The notes under the pieces were generated by a model. It worked only from the letters and a program-made list of their open reading frames with translations, did no database searches and was not told the DNA's origin. Positions 2,341 through 64,000 of a DNA stretch of 64,000 nt are shown here, piece by piece; positions within the stretch are counted from its first letter, which is position 1; each line of letters opens with the position of its first letter. This DNA is from Loxodes magnus (lineage: Eukaryota > Ciliophora > Karyorelictea > Loxodida > Loxodidae), in assembly GCA_946699065.1 (NCBI GenBank), contig CAMPDV010000091.1, positions 248,001-312,000 on the forward strand, read 5' to 3'. Made by a program: the position numbers and the translations under genes.

Positions 2341-5164
2341 ATGGGGTGCGCATAAACATAGGCTTTTTGTGGTAAATGCAAGTAAGAAAAAGATAATTCA
2401 GTTAAACTTGAATGCAATCATTACTTATGCTACCCAGATTTCTTAAACAGTAAACTTACCTTCGATTGATAAGATAAATCTTTTACCTTTAAATGTCCCA
2501 CTTGTGGAAGACAATTTAAAATGAAAAAAAAAACTCATTTAAGCTTAAAACTCTATCAGGTAATAGTTTCTATATTTTTAGACAACTGAATAGAATAAAA
2601 AGTACAAGAAACTATTATAGGATAATAACATAGATAAAAGACTTATTTAAGAAATTGAAAATTTCTCTATTTTTTAGAAAAATTAAGAAAATAAAAATAA
2701 AGTAATAAATACTAAAATATATGAAGAATAAAAGCAATCTAGATAAAATATAACAAGAGACGAAGAAGAAAATATCGAAAAACTTTAAAATGAAAATAAA
2801 ATCTTAAAGAACTAGTAATAAAAATTATAGACTGATTAAATATAACTTACAGAATAAAGCAAAGATTATTAAGTATAAATAGATAAACTAAAATAGAAAA
2901 TAAATGAGATAGAAAAAATTATACAAGAATACGAAAACCTAAAGAAAAAATTAATTTCCTATGAAAAAATAGAATAAGAATTTGACGAATTTAAAGGAAA
3001 TTTTGAAAGCTTAAAAAAAGAAAAAATTGAATATTAAAATAAAAAGGAGCAACTAAAAAAGTATATAAATCAACTATAAAATATGAGTTAATAGAATGAA
3101 AAAAATCTATCAGAGGCGTAAAAATAATACTCCTTACTATAACAAGAATTTAATTCAAAATAAGATTAAATTTAAAAGTTGGAAGAAGAAAAATAATAAA
3201 TAAACTTAAAACTATAAAAATACTAAGATAAAGAAGAAAACTCATAATAAAGTTACATTGGACAAATTCGTTAATTAAACGAAGAAAATGTCAAGCTTAA
3301 AGAAGATAAGTTCAAAACACAAAACGAAAAGTAAAAAATAGAAAAAGAACTTTAAAAACTTAAAATTCAAAACGAATAAATATAAAGTCAGTTAACTTAA
3401 CTTATCATTCTAAAAGAATAATAAGAGGATCAAGTAAAATAACTAGAAAGTTAAAAGAATTCTCTATAATAGCAAATAAATCTTTTAAAGGAAGAATAAA
3501 CCAATTTATAAAATAAATGCTTATAAAAGGATAATATAATAGATAATTAAAATAAAGAAATTATTAAAATATAAAATGAAAATTCTATGAAGTAGAAAAA
3601 ATAAAAAAATAGCCAAGAAAATTTCTAAGATCATCAGCTTAAACAAATTTATTCTCGAAAATCACTTAATACTTATGGAAACGAATACAAACATAATACT
3701 AATATTCAAAAAATCCTTCAAGAACTTCAGTAAAAGTTTGATTCTTTTAGAAATGTTAGAGGAGACGGAAACTGCTACTTCAGAGCTGTTGGGTTTTCTT
3801 TCTTAGAACATCTACTTCGATATACTACTCCTGTTCAACATCTCGAAGATTTCATTAATAAGTTGGAAAGCAAAATAGGATACTATTAAATAAGACCTTC
3901 TTCTTCTAACTTTAAAACTCATCAAAATTTGAATCAAACTTTGCTAAATTTTTTGACAAACTTGAAAGAAAGAAAATAATCCAATGATAAGTATATTTTC
4001 TAAATTCTAACTGAAGAGTTAGAAAACAATAAAAATAACTAAGACGAAGCTCTCGTTTGAACTATGCGTTCTCTTACTGCTAATTACTTAGAATCTCATA
4101 GAGAATATTTCGAACCTTTCTGTTAAACTTCGTACAAATCACTTATAGAAAATGTATTAAAGATGGGTAAAGAAGCAGATGGTTTAGGAATAGGACCTCT
4201 TTAAGTAATATTAAATGTGAAGATAGAAATAGTAACAATTGATAGAAACTATGAAGAAGCTTTATCATTTGAATAGATGAAGATAGCAGGAAAATGTCCC
4301 ATAATATATATCCTATATAAGCCAGGACACTATGATATTATATACTCAAAAAATTAGTCGAATGTAGATGGATATGATCATTCGAGTGAATAATATACTT
4401 ATTTATTAAAATTACCTCAGGGATACGATATAAATACTCCGAGTTTTCCATTTTTTATAGAAATAGAGAAGAATGGATAAGAGTGTCCGAAAGCAGAGTT
4501 TAAGCAGTTTTAAATTAAGTTTGACTTTCCTTACTAAAACACATAAGAAATATCGTAGGAAATGAGTAAAATGGAAGTATAGAATAATTAGCAATAAGAA
4601 GTGAGATTATAGAAATGCTAAACATGCTAATTAGAAATAGAATAATAATAGTTTATAGATTTGGAGTGTCATCATTTGATATGTTCATATTGTTTAAAAG
4701 ATTAAATAGAATAATAAACAAAAGGAAAAATAATATTAAATAGTAATGAAAGAGGACAAAGAGGAAGTTGCTAGATATGTGGTAGAGAATTTACTAAAGA
4801 AGAACTAGAGAAGATAGTTGGAAAGGAGAAGTATGAAAAAGCTTATAAAATTTCATAGGAAAGACTTAAAACATAAATTAAGAATATCTAAATGCAAAAT
4901 AAAAATAATTTTACTAATTTTATTAAATGCATTAATATCAAAATTAAATATATTTATATTTAATATAATTATAAGATAAACATTTTAATATAATTATATA
5001 AAATGGATGTCGGCTGCGTCAGAAAAACTAGTAGGTAATTTGGTGCAGTGTATACTGCATTGCGAGTAATCTTGCACTAGATGCCACCACGAGGAAGGGT
5101 GGATAAACTCAGAAGAGATAAGCCTAACTTGCCCGAGGGTTTCTCTAGCAGTATAAAAGTTTGA
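2341..5164 (+). CDS. RING - coiled coil - otubain deubiquitinase - RING protein, copy 1
   Basis: Probable cytosolic cysteine protease removing ubiquitin (peptidase C65, otubain), fused to ubiquitin-ligase-type zinc fingers. The ATG at 2341 starts MGCAQTQ. Residues 10-58 hold a RING-like finger (CGKC, ECNHYLC, CPTC) in which the sixth ligand is Asp. A 22-nt intron (2560-2581) falls after codon 73. A Gln/Glu/Lys coiled coil runs to about residue 440. The otubain domain follows with GDGNCYFRAVGFS (Asp468, Cys471) and PGHYDIIY (His656); the Cys-His spacing of 185 is close to OTUB1. Residues 752-806 are a C3HC4 RING (CQTC, ECHHLICSYC, CQIC). If only TGA stops, the frame runs to 5164 inside the inserted repeat at 5003, so the true end (about 4860-4960) is unsure. 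The domain calls are firm; joint activity is inferred. Confidence 0.85.
2560..2581 (+). other. 22-nt spliceosomal intron of otubain copy 1
   Basis: It begins GTAATAG, ends TTTTTAG and lies between codons (phase 0). Removing it joins the N-terminal finger frame to the coiled-coil frame, which then stays in frame for over 700 codons to the otubain and RING domains. Copies 3 and 5 have a similar intron at the matching place. Confidence 0.85.
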
Positions 5165-5425
5165 CTGACGGGCCTTCTAATTAATGACTTAATAGCTACT
5201 TCTTATTTGATTATTATTCAAGAAGACTGAAGCATTTGACTCAAAATTAAGAATAAATTTTAATAAGAAAGTTTCCATTTGGAGAAGTTGAAGTGACTCA
5301 TTGAACTTATAGAATTTTAACAAGAAACATGAGAACATTTTTCTTAGTATTAATATTAATTCTAAAAGAGCTGCGCGCCAACGAGGTTCTTCGCGCTCTA
5401 TAATCATTTTTATTTATTTATCTAA
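5003..5425 (+). repeat. SINE-like repeat A, copy a
   Basis: About 420 bp starting TATATAAAATGGATGTCGG and ending in the shared 3' hairpin (5368-5398) and (TTTA)n. Four copies lie in the window (also 8374, 33452 on the minus strand, 35867). The body contains a perfect TGCAGT-GTAT-ACTGCA hairpin and a CCACC...GGTGG stem. It lies directly behind otubain gene 1 and may have replaced that gene's 3' end. No tRNA-type A/B boxes were found, so the SINE label rests on size, 3' tail and copy number. Confidence 0.75.
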
Positions 5426-9671: not shown

Positions 9672-12029
9672 TCATTTATCTTTTTATGTCAAAATTATCT
9701 ATAATTAAATTTAATAAATTAAAAATTTTATATTTATTTAATACGAAATTGATAACTTAATAAGAAAAAATTTTTATCTTTAAAGTTACTAATTCAATCT
9801 CTCAGCTGCCTATTTCAATGCTTTTTCATACTTCTCCTTTCCAACTATCTTCTCTAGTTCTTCTTTAGTAAATTCTCTACCACATATCTAGCAACTTCCT
9901 CTTTGTCCTCTTTCATTACTATTTAATATTATTTTTCCTTTTGTTTATTATTCTATTTAATCTTTTAAACAATATGAACATATCAAATGATGACACTCCA
10001 AATCTATAAACTATTATTATTCTATTTCTAATTAGCATGTTTAGCATTTCTATAATCTCACTTCTTATTGCTAATTATTCTATACTTCCATTTTACTCAT
10101 TTCCTACGATATTTCTTATGTGTTTTAGTAAGGAAAGTCAAACTAAATTTAAAACTGCTTAAACTCTGCTTTCGGACACTCTTATCTATTCTTCTCTATT
10201 TCTATAAAAAATGGAAAACTCGGAGTATTTATATCGTATCCCTGAGGTAATTTTAATAAATAAGTATATTATTCACTCGAATGATCATATCCATCTACAT
10301 TCGACTAATTTTTTGAGTATATAATATCATAGTGTCCTGGCTTATATAGGATATATATTATGGGACATTTTCCTGCTATCTTCATCTATTCAAATGATAA
10401 AACTTCTTCATAGTTTCTATCAATTGTTACTATTTCTATCTTCACATTTAATATTACTTAAAGAGGTCCTATTCCTAAACCATCTGCTTCTTTACCCATC
10501 TTTAATACATTTTCTATAAGTGATTTGTACGTAGTTTAACAGAAAGGTTCGAAATATTCTCTATGAGATTCTAAGTAATTAGCAGTAAGAGAACGCATAG
10601 TTCAAACGAGAGCTTCGTCTTAGTTATTTTTATTGTTTTCTAACTCTTCAGTTAGAATTTAGAAAATATACTTATCATTGGATTATTTTCTTTCTTTCAA
10701 GTTTGTCAAAAAATTTAGGAAAGTTTGATTCAAATTTTGATGAGTTTTAAAGTTAGAAGAAGAAGGTCTTATTTAATAGTATCCTATTTTGCTTTCCAAC
10801 TTATTAATGAAATCTTCGAGATGTTGAACAGGAGTAGTATATCGAAGTAGATGTTCTAAGAAAGAAAACCCAACAGCTCTGAAGTAGCAGTTTCCGTCTC
10901 CTCTAACATTTCTAAAAGAATCAAACTTTTACTGAAGTTCTTGAAGGATTTTTTGAATATTAGTATTATGTTTGTATTCGTTTCCATAAGTATTAAGTGA
11001 TTTTCGAGAATAAATTTGTTTAAGTTCATGATTTTTAACATCTGTCTCAAGAGGAGATTTATTTTATAAAGAATTTTGTTCCTAATTTTATAAATTTTAA
11101 ATTTGTTCATTTTGCTAACTTCATAAGTTTTAAATTTATTTTTCTTAGTTTTTTATGATTATATCTTTTTCTTCATTTTTATTTTGCACTCAAACTATTT
11201 CTTATTTTAGAATTTCGAATTATTGCAAAAGTTAAGTTATTTAATTTTCTTTTTATTCATATTATTACTCTTATTTCTTTTGATTTTCTATGAGTTAAGA
11301 TAATTGCTTCTATTCGCAATCGTTTTAGTTTTATAATTTTACTTTTTAATGCTTATATCTGCTTTTTTTTAAATTTATTATTTTATTATCTTCTTAAAGT
11401 TTTCCAATATTTTCTTCTAATAATTTTATTTTTTAATTAAATTTATTTTCTTTCTTTTCTGCTTCTAACTTTTAGATTTCAAGTTATTTTTTCTATTAAT
11501 TTAATTCCTCAATTAAGTTTTTAATTTTAGTTTAATAAATTTGGTCTTGTGTTTCTTAATTTAACTTAGCCATAGAATTATTTTAAGCATTATGAATTTC
11601 AAGGCATTCTTATTAATTATTAGCTTCATTGAAGATTTTATAGGTACATTTTTATTTATTCTTTTCTTATATTTATTTTATGGTAATTTGTGTTACATCT
11701 AAAAAACTAGCAGGCTTAACATTAAAGAAACTTTCTTCCAGTTAATCTGTTTCTTATTATAGCTTCTTAAGTTCCTTTATTTCAGTTTATTTCTTACAAA
11801 TAAAGCACGTAATCGTTATTAAATATTGCTCTTTCTACTCTTTAGTTTTTTCAATTTAACTGAAGCATTCACTACAAAATTTATGATTACATTCTAATTA
11901 ATCTTAAAGTTATTTTGTTTCTTTACATTTGTCACATATTTCTTATTCATCAATTTGACATTAATTACTTTGAGCAAATATTTAATTATCTTCAACTTGG
12001 CTTTTAAGACCTTTTTAATTTTAGCTCAT
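9672..12029 (-). CDS. RING - coiled coil - otubain deubiquitinase - RING protein, copy 2
   Basis: A single open frame of 785 codons from the ATG at 12029 (MSQNQKGLK) to TGA at 9674-9672, with no intron needed. A complete C3HC4 RING near residues 32-80 (CDKC, ECNHKFCSEC, CFIC) is followed by a Gln-rich coiled coil. The otubain domain has Cys381 in GDGNCYF and His566 in PGHYDIIY, with the same 185-residue spacing as copy 1, and a C-terminal RING follows. From KQIYSRKS to just past the last RING it differs from copy 1 at only a handful of bases, while the N-terminal finger, coiled coil and last tail are unrelated in sequence. It is in opposite orientation to copy 1, about 5 kb away. The predicted job is deubiquitination coupled to RING-mediated E2 binding. 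Best-preserved member of the family here. Confidence 0.87.
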
Positions 12030-27500: not shown

Positions 27501-27539
27501 GATTCATATTAATTATTTTATTTTATTTAGGTAATTGTA

Positions 27540-28620
27540 AGAAAATGCTATCTAAATTTTAATATTTAAAGAAACTAGATAAACTAGGACTTATTTGATA
27601 AAATCCTATTTTATTTAATAGTTTGCTATTGAAATCTTCGAGATCTTAAATAGGAGTAGTAAACCCAGTAAAATGTTCTAAATAAGAGTATTCGGCAGCT
27701 CGGAAGTGACAGTAACCATCTCCTCATATATTTATATAAGAATTGAATTAGGTAGATAGTTGATGAATTATATTTAGAATGCTGTTATTATTCTTGAACA
27801 ATTACTTAGAGTTTTAAGAGATTTTCTTTTATAAACTTTAATTATTTAGGAGTTGAGAATTAATTGAAGAAGTTTAAGTTGGATAATTTATTTCATTTGA
27901 GATTATTGGAAGAAGTTAATTTAATTTTTGAGATGAAAGATTTCAAGTTTTAGTATTTTTAGGTTTTTATCTTTTTCTAATAATTAAGTTTGTAAGAAAA
28001 TGAGTTCTTATTTTAGATTTTCGATTTAAGCTTAGATTTAATTGCATTTTTATCAAAAATGTTAAGTTCTGTTTCAAGCATTATTATGAGAATTATCTTT
28101 ATATTAAAATTTTCTAGTTATTGTATATTATACTTAAAGCCTCTAATTTTATTTAATATGTTTAGATATTTTCTTTTGATCTAATAATTTTTATAGTTTC
28201 TAAAATAATTTTAATATGATTATCTATTTATTGTTATATTTTTTCTCTTTTTTATTTTTATTTAAATGTTTTATTTTAAATATAAACTTCAAAAAAAAAT
28301 TTATTTTTATACATTCTTTTTAGAAATTTTTATTATAATTTATTGTTTTTATTCTTCATTTAATTATTTATTTGCTATTTTGTCTTTAGATATTAAACTT
28401 TGATATTCTAAATATTTATAGATTTTATTTTTCTATAAATAAGCTAAATTTCTATTTAATTTTTATAACTTTTGATTTTGAATGACATGCTTTTATCTTC
28501 TTAATTGCAAAAAGTAGTACAATAAAAATAATTAACTACATTCCTCTCACTTATCCTTTTGAGTTATGTTTTCATAATATTTAGAGCATATTAAAAGGTA
28601 ACACTTAAGATAAACAAATT
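27540..28620 (-). pseudogene. Otubain-RING family pseudogene, copy 4
   Basis: On the minus strand, from upstream to downstream: a remnant of the N-terminal finger (YYENITQKDK resembles CQENITYAED of copy 3), a Lys/Gln-rich coiled-coil stretch, and the start of the otubain domain (GDGYCHFRAAEYSYLEHF, then TTPIQDLEDF and GFYQISPS). It stops there; the catalytic His part and the C-terminal RING are absent. The Asn before the catalytic Cys has become Tyr, and finger cysteines are lost. The reading frame is disturbed between coil and protease. Clearly a dead host-gene copy, truncated at the 3' side close to the family I element. Confidence 0.65.
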
Positions 28621-51935: not shown

Positions 51936-53900
51936 TCATAGTTATTATTTTCTCTTTAAAGCCAACTTCTAAGCTTGAGCATATTTCTCTTATCCTACTG
52001 CCTTCTTTATTTCTTCATTTGTTAATATTCTTCCACATATCTAACAACTTACTTTTTAACCTCCTTCCTTATTATTCAACACTATCTTCCCTCCCGTCTT
52101 TTATATAACCCAATCTTCTAAACAATACTTACACATTGAATGATGACAGTCCAACTCTATTAAATACTGCTTCTCTATTTCCATTTAACAAACTTCACAT
52201 TTCTTTAACTTCGACTACTACATTTCTTCTATATTTTTCTTTATTTCTTATGATGTTTATAGTGTACTTTTATATGGAATATCAAATTATATATTAAATT
52301 ATTTAAATATTCTTACTTAGGACACTCTTATCCGTTTTTGTTAACTCTATGAAAAAAGGTTTATCTGGAAACTCTATGTTATAATTTTAAGGTAATTTAC
52401 TTTGATAAGTATATTTTTCACTTACTTAATCATATCCATCAGCATTCGATTGATCTTTAGAATATATTATATCATAGTGTCCTGGCTTAAATAAGATATA
52501 TAATAAAGGACATTTCCCTGCTATCTTCATCTACTCAAAAGACAGTGCTTCTTAATAGTTTCTATCAATTGTTACTATTTCTATCTTCACTTGTAATACT
52601 ACTTGAAGAGGTCCTACTCCTATTCCATCTGCTTCTTTTCCCATCGTTAAAACATTCTCGATCAGTTTCTAATAAGAAATTTAACAGAAAGGTTCGAAAT
52701 ATTCTCTATGAGACTCTAAGTAATTAGCAGTGAGAGATCTCATAGTTCAAACGAGAGCTTCATCTTAATCGTCTTTGTTATTTTGTAATTCTTCAGTTAA
52801 GAATTTCTAGATTTATTAGTAATTTTATTCCTTTTGTTGTTTTAAGTTTTATAAAAGTTGTAGGAAAACATTGTAAAGTCTTACATGTTAGTTGATTTAA
52901 GTTTAACTAGGTCTTATTTGATAATATCCCATTTTACTTTCTAGTTTATTAATGAAATCTTCTAGATGTTAAACAGGAGTAGTATATCTAGTTAGATGTT
53001 CGAGATAAGAGAATCCAACAGCTCGGAAGTAACAGTTTCCATCACCTCGAATACTTCTGTAAGAATCGAATAAATTTGATAGTTATTGAATGATGGCTTG
53101 AATGTTGTTATTATGTTTGAATTCGTTACTTAAATTTTTAAGAGATTTTCTTGGATAAATTTATAAAAGTAAAGTATTGGTAGTTTGTTGAGGAGGTTTA
53201 GGAGAGATATTTTCTTTTGGTTGAGTTTATTAAGAAGAGATAGATTTATCTTGTGAGTATAAGATTTCATTTTATTATATTTTTAGAATTTTATCTTTTT
53301 CTTATAATTAAGTTTATAAATGAAGCTGTTCGTCTTTTAAAGTTTCTGTTTAAACTTAGTATTAGATTTTTTATTATTATAAAGTGTTTATTTCTTGTGT
53401 CAACTATTTAATATGAGAATCATTCTTTATTTTTAAATTTTCTAGTTATTTTTTTTGATTTAAAAGATAGTTCTATTATTATTCTATTAACTACAGTTCT
53501 TGTTAGAATTTATTTTTTTCTTTTTTTAACTATATATTAACTTCTTGAATTACATCATATGCTCGCTAAATTTCTTAAATATTTTATTATAGTTATTAAT
53601 TTTCTAGACCACTATTTTTTAAGACTTATATTAGATCTTAATTCTTTTTTAATAACTAAATTTTTAAAAACTTACATCTTTGTACTTTCATTTTCAAATT
53701 CATTCTTTTTTTTCTATTTTGCTCTTTGCTTAACATAATATGCATATTAAAAAAAACTCGTTTGATTCGATATCTTCAGCATAAGTTATGTTTTCTTAGC
53801 ATTTCTCACAAAAATTATGGCCGCAACTAAACCCAGAAAAATTTGCTGGTTCTTAATTGCAATAATTACATAAAAGAGGCTTTTAGAATTCACAACCCAT
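51936..53900 (-). CDS. RING - coiled coil - otubain - RING protein, copy 3
   Basis: From the ATG at 53900 (MGCEFQKPLLC) on the minus strand. A complete N-terminal RING (CNYC, SCGHNFCEKC, CILC), a 20-nt intron at 53675-53656 after codon 75, then a coiled coil. The otubain domain reads GDGNCYFRAVGFSYLEHL, ALVWTMRSLTANYLESHREYF and KPGHYDIIYS, so Asp, Cys and His are kept. A C-terminal RING follows (CEVC, DCHHSMCKYC, CQIC) and the gene ends at TGA 51938-51936. Between about 52290 and 52400, after the protease, the frame that continues the protease differs from the frame of the last RING. This suggests one or two small indels or an unrecognised intron. The protease is clearly diverged from copies 1 and 2. 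The coiled coil is close to that of the gene at 63.2 kb. Confidence 0.8.
53656..53675 (-). other. 20-nt intron of otubain copy 3
   Basis: On the minus strand GTAAGTTTTTAAAAATTTAG, phase 0. Splicing joins ...KWKYKD to LLKKNQDLIQ and keeps the coiled-coil frame. Same position relative to the finger as in copies 1 and 5. Confidence 0.85.
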
Positions 53901-63199: not shown

Positions 63200-64000
63200 A
63201 TGGGATGTGGTTCTTCAACTTAATTTTGTAATGAATGCAATGCACTTATATAAAATATATAGTAATCTGTTCATCCTAAGTGCTAGCATTTATTATGCTA
63301 TTAATGCTATGAAAAAATATCTCTAGAGAATAAAGTAAGTGGAATGTAATTAACTATTTATTTCTGTCCTGTTTGCTGCAAATAAGAGGAAAAGAAATAG
63401 CCACTCTAGACTAAATAGCAAAATTCAATGGTAATTTTTACTTATTTTATAGAAAAATGAAAATTATGAAGATTTTGAATATTAGAATTTAATATAAAAA
63501 GACTAAATAGAAAATAAAGCATAGCAAGAAAACTAAAAAAAAATAAATTAGATTAAAAATTTACTGAAATAAGAGTTTACAAAAATCAAAAACATTTCAG
63601 AAGGATATATCTAAAACTAAAACTTAATAAATAAATAATAATAAAATGAAAAAATGAAATAATAAATAGAAAATTAAAAAATAGATTAAAAAAATTAAGA
63701 TCAAAAACCATTAAGTTAATTAGATGGCCAACAAATTTCTTAAACCAATTTAATAGAATCAGATATTCTAAAACATAAAATACAAGAACTAGAAAATTTA
63801 AAAATAAAGAATGATTCTCATATTAAATAGTTGACACAAGAAATAAGCACTTTATAATAATAAAACATCTAATACTAAGTTTAAACAGAAACTTTAAAAG
63901 ACGAACTGCTTCATTTATAAACTTAATTATAAGAAAAAGATAAAATTCTAAAAATATAATAACTTGAAATCTTATACTCACAAGATAAATCTATCTCTTC
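63200..64000 (+). CDS. RING - coiled coil (- otubain - RING) protein, copy 5, cut by window end
   Basis: The ATG at 63200 starts MGCGSSTQFC. A complete RING-type finger (CNEC, KCQHLLCYQC, CPVC) is followed by a 22-nt phase-0 intron (63431-63452) after codon 77, then a Gln/Asn-rich coiled coil to the window edge. From QELENLKIKNDSHIK onward it is nearly identical to copy 3, which then runs into the otubain domain, so the same continuation is expected beyond the edge. The finger itself differs clearly from copy 3. Confidence 0.8.
63431..63452 (+). other. 22-nt intron of otubain copy 5
   Basis: Begins GTAATTTTTAC and ends ATTTTATAG, phase 0. Removal joins TKQQNSM to KNENYEDFE in the coiled-coil frame. 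Confidence 0.85.

What the first reader, a model, noticed from the sequence alone, without database searches (positions are those of the whole stretch)
2341..4860. Deubiquitinase flanked by two RING fingers in one protein
Copies 1-3 put an otubain protease with intact Asp/Cys/His between an N-terminal RING-type finger plus long coiled coil and a C-terminal C3HC4 RING. Otubains such as OTUB1 are known to bind E2 enzymes non-catalytically. A chain with RINGs at both ends could load and trim ubiquitin on one scaffold. I know of no standard otubain with this layout. Five copies in 64 kb mark an expanded family.
Basis: partly seen in the sequence, partly recalled or inferred. Interest (0 to 1): 0.8.

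Follow-up and report, generated by a model that had tools for sequence, protein, structure and literature searches.

The report
Deubiquitinase fused to ubiquitin-ligase-type fingers
A single-celled ciliate carries a large gene family that welds a ubiquitin-removing enzyme to a ubiquitin-ligase-type zinc finger, and some members, including those here, have a second such finger at the front end, which varies from gene to gene while the enzyme part stays nearly constant among neighbours.

Summary
Copy 1 needs a 22-nt intron (2560-2581); spliced, it reads N-terminal RING-like finger, coiled coil, otubain (Pfam C65, 1.2e-37), C-terminal RING. Copy 2 has the same layout without an intron. Copy 5, which runs off the window, is intact with a TGA stop. 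Copy 3 has both fingers, but its frame breaks before the C-RING. Copy 4 is a remnant. The genome (705.7 Mb, probably Loxodes magnus) has 226 exact active-site motifs, 0 in the reversed control. Of 150 scored C-RING hits, 111 follow a listed otubain; two divergent otubains seem to have it too, so this fusion is probably old. The N-terminal finger is seen in 14 of 40 loci and is the variable part. In 28 of 38 closely similar pairs the match is confined to the otubain-RING cassette; copies 1 and 2 are 99.3% identical there and unmatched directly outside, which points to gene conversion. Most likely these are ubiquitin-editing enzymes (ligase plus DUB) aimed by variable front ends. Neither activity is shown; no transcript data.

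The parts
2341..2559 (+). Copy 1 exon 1: MGCAQTQ start, N-terminal RING-like finger (ligands 2368-2505; sixth ligand Asp)
2560..2581 (+). Copy 1 predicted intron, 22 nt, GTAATAGTTTCTATATTTTTAG; the same 22 nt stand in L011 and L033
2582..3626 (+). Copy 1 long Q/K/E/N-rich coil
3627..4842 (+). Copy 1 constant cassette (otubain + C-RING), 99.3% identical to copy 2, with no DNA match directly on either side
3665..4348 (+). Copy 1 otubain (Peptidase C65), GDGNC and GHYD intact
4616..4780 (+). Copy 1 C-terminal RING, all eight C3HC4 ligands
9786..12029 (-). Copy 2, single exon, 748 aa read: N-RING 11936-11796, coil, otubain 10997-10314, C-RING 10046-9882; in-frame stop not located
27517..27831 (-). 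Copy 4: decayed remnant of the first half of an otubain; 73% DNA similarity to copy 5 from 28751 to 27582
51936..53900 (-). Copy 3: MGCEF start, full C3HC4 N-RING 53870-53733, proposed intron about 53675-53656, otubain 53151-52459, frame break, C-RING within 52253-51966
63200..63430 (+). Copy 5 exon 1: MGCGSST start, N-RING 63227-63376
63431..63452 (+). Copy 5 predicted intron, 22 nt
63453..64000 (+). Copy 5 exon 2, coil; otubain, C-RING and TGA stop lie beyond the window (L049, to window-equivalent 65294)

Best explanation
The genes encode ubiquitin-editing enzymes: an otubain deubiquitinase joined to a C-terminal RING that would recruit an E2~ubiquitin, so that one chain can build and trim ubiquitin on the same target. 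The N-terminal part (a second RING-like finger, often with an MG(C/N) start that fits lipid anchoring, or only a long coil) oligomerises the protein and aims it at a place or target. The otubain-RING cassette is kept alike among neighbouring genes by gene conversion while the front ends diverge. Shown: layout, intact active-site residues, purifying selection on the otubain, conserved zinc ligands, mosaic DNA identity. Inferred: splicing, both enzyme activities, lipid anchoring, targeting role, gene conversion as the cause.
For: GDGNC and GHYD in 40 of 40 loci (GDGNC was required for inclusion; GHYD was not, though the loci were ranked by a profile that covers it). Otubain dN/dS median 0.149 in the 406 of 780 pairs with dS 0.05-1.5. 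C-RING with seven fixed ligands in 38 of 40 loci, all eight in 32 of 40; Val/Ile at the c-Cbl I383 position in 29 of 38 and Trp at the W408 position in 15 of 38 (c-Cbl positions recalled). RING start a median 936 nt after otubain start, 111 of 150 scored hits. N-finger profile hits upstream in 14 of 40 loci at E<0.01, reverse-strand control 0 of 40 (9 of the 14 were in the profile and 4 more are near-copies of those, so only L040 is an independent find; eight loci had been found before by a pattern). N-RING model of copy 3 pLDDT 83.6, best Foldseek match the IDOL RING, prob 0.92. MG start in 12 of 40 models against 41 of 459 internal Met followed by Gly, P=1.3e-4 (paralogs are not independent). 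Match confined to the cassette in 28 of 38 pairs of at least 88% identity. L018/L033 differences: 24 of 219 nt in exon 1, 16 of 1056 coil, 2 of 768 otubain, 1 of 420 linker + C-RING.
Against: No transcript, biochemical or localisation data. C-RING dN/dS median 0.45 (368 of 703 pairs) and a replaced sixth ligand in 6 of 38 suggest that ligase function is not held everywhere. The residue after the last Cys, often Arg in active RINGs (recalled), is N/K/G/S/T/Q in all 38. Four of the eight fingers of copies 1, 2, 3 and 5 do not reach a Pfam cut-off. AlphaFold2 of whole copy 2 failed (pLDDT 44.4). The Foldseek E-value for the N-RING is only 0.24, and RNA-polymerase zinc ribbons stand among the first ten.
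Confidence: 0.5

Rival explanations
1. A deubiquitinase with built-in E2 recruitment: the RINGs make no chains but hold E2s that stimulate or are restrained by the otubain, as E2s do with OTUB1.
For: OTUB1 binds E2s, is stimulated by E2 not charged with ubiquitin and traps E2~Ub (start of abstract and passages of PMC6254341). The residue aligned with OTUB1 T134, where T134R abolishes E2 binding, is Thr in copy 1 (alignment) and Ser in the family consensus. C-RING constraint is weak.
Against: T134 alone is a weak marker. The OTUB1 N-terminal ubiquitin-binding helix (recalled) lies where these proteins have unrelated coil. Full RING ligands remain in 32 of 40.
Confidence: 0.25
2. The fingers are structural or substrate-binding only, and the family is one more inflated paralog family in a duplication-rich genome with no shared special function.
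For: USP-type proteases are also numerous (111 matches from 110 scored of 457 candidates). Copies decay (copies 3 and 4). Four of the eight fingers of copies 1, 2, 3 and 5 are below Pfam cut-offs.
Against: Zinc ligands are kept in the N-finger while much of the rest varies. A C-RING-like match is kept across the deepest split of the tree (own profile, 44.5 and 44.6 bits), although Pfam supports it only weakly there.
Confidence: 0.2
3. The otubain-RING cassette is a mobile element or is carried by one, inserting behind new front ends.
For: Sharp cassette edges near -125 and +1070 nt in many pairs with no flank match.
Against: The 5' edge coincides with the start of the otubain domain; L029/L030 match over the whole fetched stretch (possibly haplotypes), L018/L033 match to -2750 on the 5' side and L011/L033 to +2288 on the 3' side, so larger copying also occurs; the gene finder lists no other coding frame in the window above its score cut (trained on this family only); no viral relative confirmed. 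Target-site duplications were not looked for.
Confidence: 0.05

Closest known systems
OTUB1/OTUB2 otubains (Pfam PF10275, MEROPS C65)
   Same: Catalytic domain, active-site motifs; best PDB sequence match 3von OTUB1, E=4.9e-21
   Different: OTUB1/2 have no RING and no such coil, and human has two genes (recalled); here 226 exact motif matches
A20/TNFAIP3 ubiquitin-editing enzyme
   Same: Works-like parallel: OTU-type DUB and ubiquitin-ligase zinc fingers in one chain (recalled; search listings only)
   Different: A20 is another OTU subfamily, with A20-type fingers behind the protease (recalled); no A20-type finger was hit here
TRIM proteins
   Same: N-terminal RING followed by coiled coil and another domain; expanded family (start of abstract of PMC3137616 in listing)
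   Different: No B-box; an otubain and a second RING instead of the usual C-terminal domains
Bacterial otubain-like proteins (three Legionellales MAGs and a gammaproteobacterial MAG)
   Same: 4 loci with 22-26% identity to the otubain
   Different: Not read further; RING not looked for

Membership tests
Otubain (Peptidase C65) | C65 profile over curated cut-off | tested here: met
   copy 1 130.2 bits, copy 2 131.2 and copy 5 126.1 bits, cut-off 24.3; 150 of 150 scored of 474 candidates in the genome
Otubain (Peptidase C65) | Catalytic Cys and His with Asp | tested here: met
   GDGNC (required for inclusion) and GHYD 40 of 40 loci
Otubain (Peptidase C65) | Cleaves ubiquitin chains | not testable with these tools
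   needs enzyme assay
Otubain (Peptidase C65) | OTUB1-type E2 binding site | tested here: inconclusive
   only the T134 position examined: Thr in copy 1, Ser in consensus
RING finger, C-terminal | C3HC4 zinc ligands | tested here: met
   eight ligands in 32 of 40 loci, seven in 38 of 40; copies 1, 2, 3, 5 have all eight
RING finger, C-terminal | Pfam RING profile over cut-off | tested here: met
   zf-C3HC4 copy 3 25.9, L044 28.2, copy 5 23.7, cut-off 21; not met for copy 1 (zf-C3HC4 18.6, zf-RING_5 24.2 against 27.9) nor copy 2 in the whole protein, nor L050 and L051
RING finger, N-terminal | C3HC4 ligands and Pfam profile | tested here: inconclusive
   copy 3 23.0 and copy 2 21.6 over cut-off 21 scanned alone; copy 2 in whole protein 18.6, below; copies 1 and 5 below cut-off; copy 1 has Asp as sixth ligand
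RING E3 ligase | Ligase activity with an E2 | not testable with these tools
   E2-contact residues partly kept
TRIM | B-box after the RING | tested here: not met
   no B-box over cut-off in the proteins scanned; weak zf-B_box 15.3 against 24.1 and ANCHR-like_BBOX 22.5 against 27 overlap the copy 3 N-RING itself
A20 | A20-type zinc fingers C-terminal to an A20-type OTU domain | tested here: not met
   no such Pfam hit; protease is C65

The most novel reading that the evidence does not exclude
A variable/constant recognition repertoire in a ciliate: a few hundred largely clustered genes pair a gene-conversion-homogenised ubiquitin-editing core with diverging, partly membrane-anchored RING or coiled-coil front ends, working as an intracellular recognition system (against parasites, symbionts or non-self) that marks or spares its targets with ubiquitin.
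Probability: 0.2. Interest if true: 0.87.

Novelty: new variant of a known kind. Interest (0 to 1): 0.62.

Why it matters
If both activities are real, this is a natural single-chain ligase-plus-DUB built on an otubain rather than on A20, present in a very large number of versions, so ubiquitin editing by one polypeptide could be studied across many natural variants. The constant-core/variable-front pattern resembles recognition repertoires and gives a testable case of gene conversion with edges at a domain boundary. In the paper searches made I saw no report of this layout in the listings; the library lacks most subscription journals, and supplementary files could not be read.

Tried and rejected
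Considered and rejected: reading the gene without an intron (one search gives a frame that loses the coil and protease; the spliced frame restores them). An ordinary whole-gene duplication as the origin of copies 1 and 2 (no match directly outside the cassette, at 99.3% identity inside it). Positive selection on the N-RING: pN/pS 0.68, 0.71 and 2.3 in three pairs with few synonymous changes, and synonymous changes are higher in exon 1 too in two of them, so recombination explains it without selection. A viral origin: 25 stretches matched a pattern, none confirmed. The polinton OTU domains of PMC11071308 (passages) are a different use of OTU proteases.

Led nowhere: AlphaFold2 of whole copy 2 (pLDDT 44.4); ARAGORN and Rfam on the window, none; tandem repeats of score 150 or more, none; a Pfam scan in wrong frames, repeated in frame.

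Limits: the 40 loci are the best-scoring 40 of 150 scored candidates of 474, so they lean to canonical otubains; L049-L051 were picked by me. In 14 of 40 models the coding region runs to within about 500 nt of the fetched 5' edge, so absence of an N-finger is not shown there (L010 L015 L019 L022 L025 L031 L032 L036 L039 L042 L043 L044 L046 L047). In 2 of the 14 N-finger loci (L024, L040) the finger lies upstream of my predicted start. L026 and L035 have a partial finger by eye that the profile did not list. Gene models come from my own simple Viterbi finder trained on this family. Loci on different contigs may be haplotype duplicates (L029/L030). L031 and L032 were left out of the C-RING dN/dS.

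Full report
Where it is. The window is G000:C91:248001-312000 of a genome of 705,730,643 bases in 7,843 contigs. That size equals the 706 Mbp macronuclear assembly of Loxodes magnus, which uses code 27 (TAA/TAG = Gln, TGA = Trp or stop) and introns of mean 19.3 bp (passages of PMC11441545). The species name is my inference; the genome handle carries none. In that paper's main text 'ubiquitin' and 'gene famil' occur 0 times, 'expan' 0 times and 'otubain' 0 times (listing).

The gene. Read straight through, 2341 onward gives the N-terminal finger and then loses the frame. Removing GTAATAGTTTCTATATTTTTAG (2560-2581) gives one frame: finger, long coil, otubain, C-terminal RING, with only two in-frame TGAs up to position 5000, read as Trp. 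Pfam finds Peptidase_C65 at 1.2e-37; both fingers of copy 1 score below gathering. Copy 2 on the other strand needs no intron. Copy 5 starts MGCGSST, has a 22-nt intron, and ends at a TGA after 690 residues, beyond the window. Copy 3 starts MGCEF and has both fingers, but the frame breaks between protease and C-RING; whether that is a real lesion or an assembly error cannot be told here. Copy 4 is a remnant.

Are the fingers RINGs? Over Pfam's zf-C3HC4 cut-off of 21 bits: copy 3 N 23.0, copy 2 N 21.6 (scanned alone; 18.6 inside the whole protein), copy 3 C 25.9, L044 C 28.2, copy 5 C 23.7. Not over a cut-off: copy 1 N and C, copy 2 C, copy 5 N. In the N-fingers of copies 1, 2, 3 and 5 the invariant columns are seven zinc ligands and one Cys near the start (for copy 2 that first Cys is not near its real N-terminus); copy 1 has Asp at the sixth ligand. 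A profile of the N-finger matches the C-RING profile (hhalign probability 93.9, E 1.5e-7). AlphaFold2 of the copy 3 N-finger, on four window sequences, reached pLDDT 83.6. Its best PDB matches are RINGs of IDOL, with cIAP2 and PML among the first 13, but at E 0.24 or worse and with RNA-polymerase zinc ribbons among them. C-RING: all eight ligands in 32 of 40 loci, at least seven in 38 of 40; L013 and L032 fail.

The family. All 150 scored candidates of 474 exceed the C65 cut-off. An exact active-site DNA motif occurs 226 times, 0 in the reversed control. A C-RING search gave 150 scored hits of 475 candidates; 111 of these 150 lie a median 936 nt after the start of a listed otubain on the same strand, 39 do not, and 50 of the 150 scored otubains lack a listed C-RING (both lists are truncated, so neither number is an absence). 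Two divergent otubains outside the main clade, L050 and L051, also match my own C-RING profile behind the protease (44.5 and 44.6 bits); Pfam supports it only weakly for L050 (zf-RING_2 19.2 against 27.3) and not for L051. So the C-terminal fusion probably predates the expansion. The N-finger is found upstream in 14 of 40 loci, twice in L037; reverse-strand control none at E<0.01. Nine of those 14 loci were in the profile and four more are near-copies of these, so the profile is a consistency check rather than an independent discovery; eight had been found by a ligand pattern. In 12 of the 14 the finger lies inside my gene model. Fourteen other loci cannot be judged because coding runs close to the fetched edge. 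In the otubain tree the N-finger loci sit on several separate branches, and loci of one contig mostly group together. Genome searches with two window-type N-fingers found only three copy-1-like loci, all of them on contig C91 and ahead of otubains already fetched, and for copy 3 only itself and two weak matches, also on C91: the fingers are much more diverse than the core.

Selection. Otubain dN/dS median 0.149, range 0.038-0.344, 406 of 780 pairs with dS 0.05-1.5; C-RING median 0.45, 368 of 703 pairs. The protease is clearly maintained; the RING is under weaker constraint.

Mosaic structure. Of 779 pairs with a match over the active site, 38 are at least 88% identical; in these the match starts at -175 to -115 nt in 31, ends at 780 to 1150 nt in 33, and does both in 28. 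L012/L018 (copies 2 and 1) match at 99.3% from -133 to +1082, L044/L047 at 99.3% from -122 to +1101, L036/L043 at 99.1% from -122 to +1038, without any other match at E 1e-10 in 5.9-kb loci. In the window, at E 1e-5, copies 1 and 2 share 3627-4842 / 11035-9820 at 99.3%; the only other match is 45 nt of coil at 84%. Copies 3 and 5 share 53478-51908 / 63751-65330 at 94.5%, coil and core, but not their finger exons. Longer copying also occurs: L029/L030 match over the whole fetched stretch (possibly haplotypes), L018/L033 from -2750 to +1082, L011/L033 from -1430 to +2288. Between L018 and L033 differences fall from exon 1 (24 of 219 nt) to coil (16 of 1056), otubain (2 of 768) and C-RING part (1 of 420), with synonymous changes falling too. 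Gene conversion of the core fits this best; a moving cassette is not excluded.

Front ends. Twelve of 40 models start MG, against 41 of 459 internal Met followed by Gly (P=1.3e-4; paralogs not independent, and starts of long-coil genes are uncertain). Window copies 1, 3 and 5 start MGCAQTQ, MGCEF and MGCGSST; copy 2 starts MSQ. The MG starts fit N-myristoylation with a neighbouring palmitoylated Cys (recalled motif), untested.

How it may work. Shown: one frame with an otubain and RING-type fingers, conserved active site and zinc ligands, selection, mosaic identity. Inferred: the RING binds E2~Ub and the otubain trims or restrains the product; the coil oligomerises; the variable front end aims the enzyme. 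OTUB1's E2 handling (PMC6254341, start of abstract and passages) makes an E2-recruitment rival serious. USP-type proteases are also numerous in this genome, so part of the expansion may be general duplication.

Elsewhere. No viral relative was confirmed; in prokaryote genomes four otubain-like loci at 22-26% identity, three of them Legionellales. Eukaryote genomes could not be searched. Paper searches listed no report of this layout; except for PMC11441545, PMC6254341 and PMC11071308 (passages) I saw papers only as listings.

Noticed in passing
window 5000-5220: GC-richer noncoding stretch behind copy 1 is a dispersed repeat: 40 scored matches (itself included) at 88-100% identity on many contigs, 3702 candidates.
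   Followed up: partly
G000:C32:80272-102824: Ubiquitin-conjugating-enzyme (UQ_con) gene in a tandem array: like copies 716 bp apart, over 30 listed.
   Followed up: no
G000, contigs C1431, C1234, C365, C141 and others: USP-type deubiquitinase domains are also numerous and clustered: 111 matches from 110 scored of 457 candidates.
   Followed up: no
L037 (C103): One otubain gene carries two N-terminal RING-like fingers in tandem plus the C-terminal RING.
   Followed up: partly
L018 (copy 1), L012 (copy 2), L011 L014 L021 L023 L025 L027 L033 L039 L042: No in-frame TGA for 69-192 codons after the C-RING, unlike 28 of 39 loci (within 44 codons); unseen 3' intron, another stop signal or decay.
   Followed up: partly
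L009 L010 L016 L017 L019 (C493) and L023 (C39): Sixth zinc ligand of the C-RING replaced by Glu, Asp or Gln in 6 of 38 loci; copy 1 N-finger has Asp at the same position.
   Followed up: no
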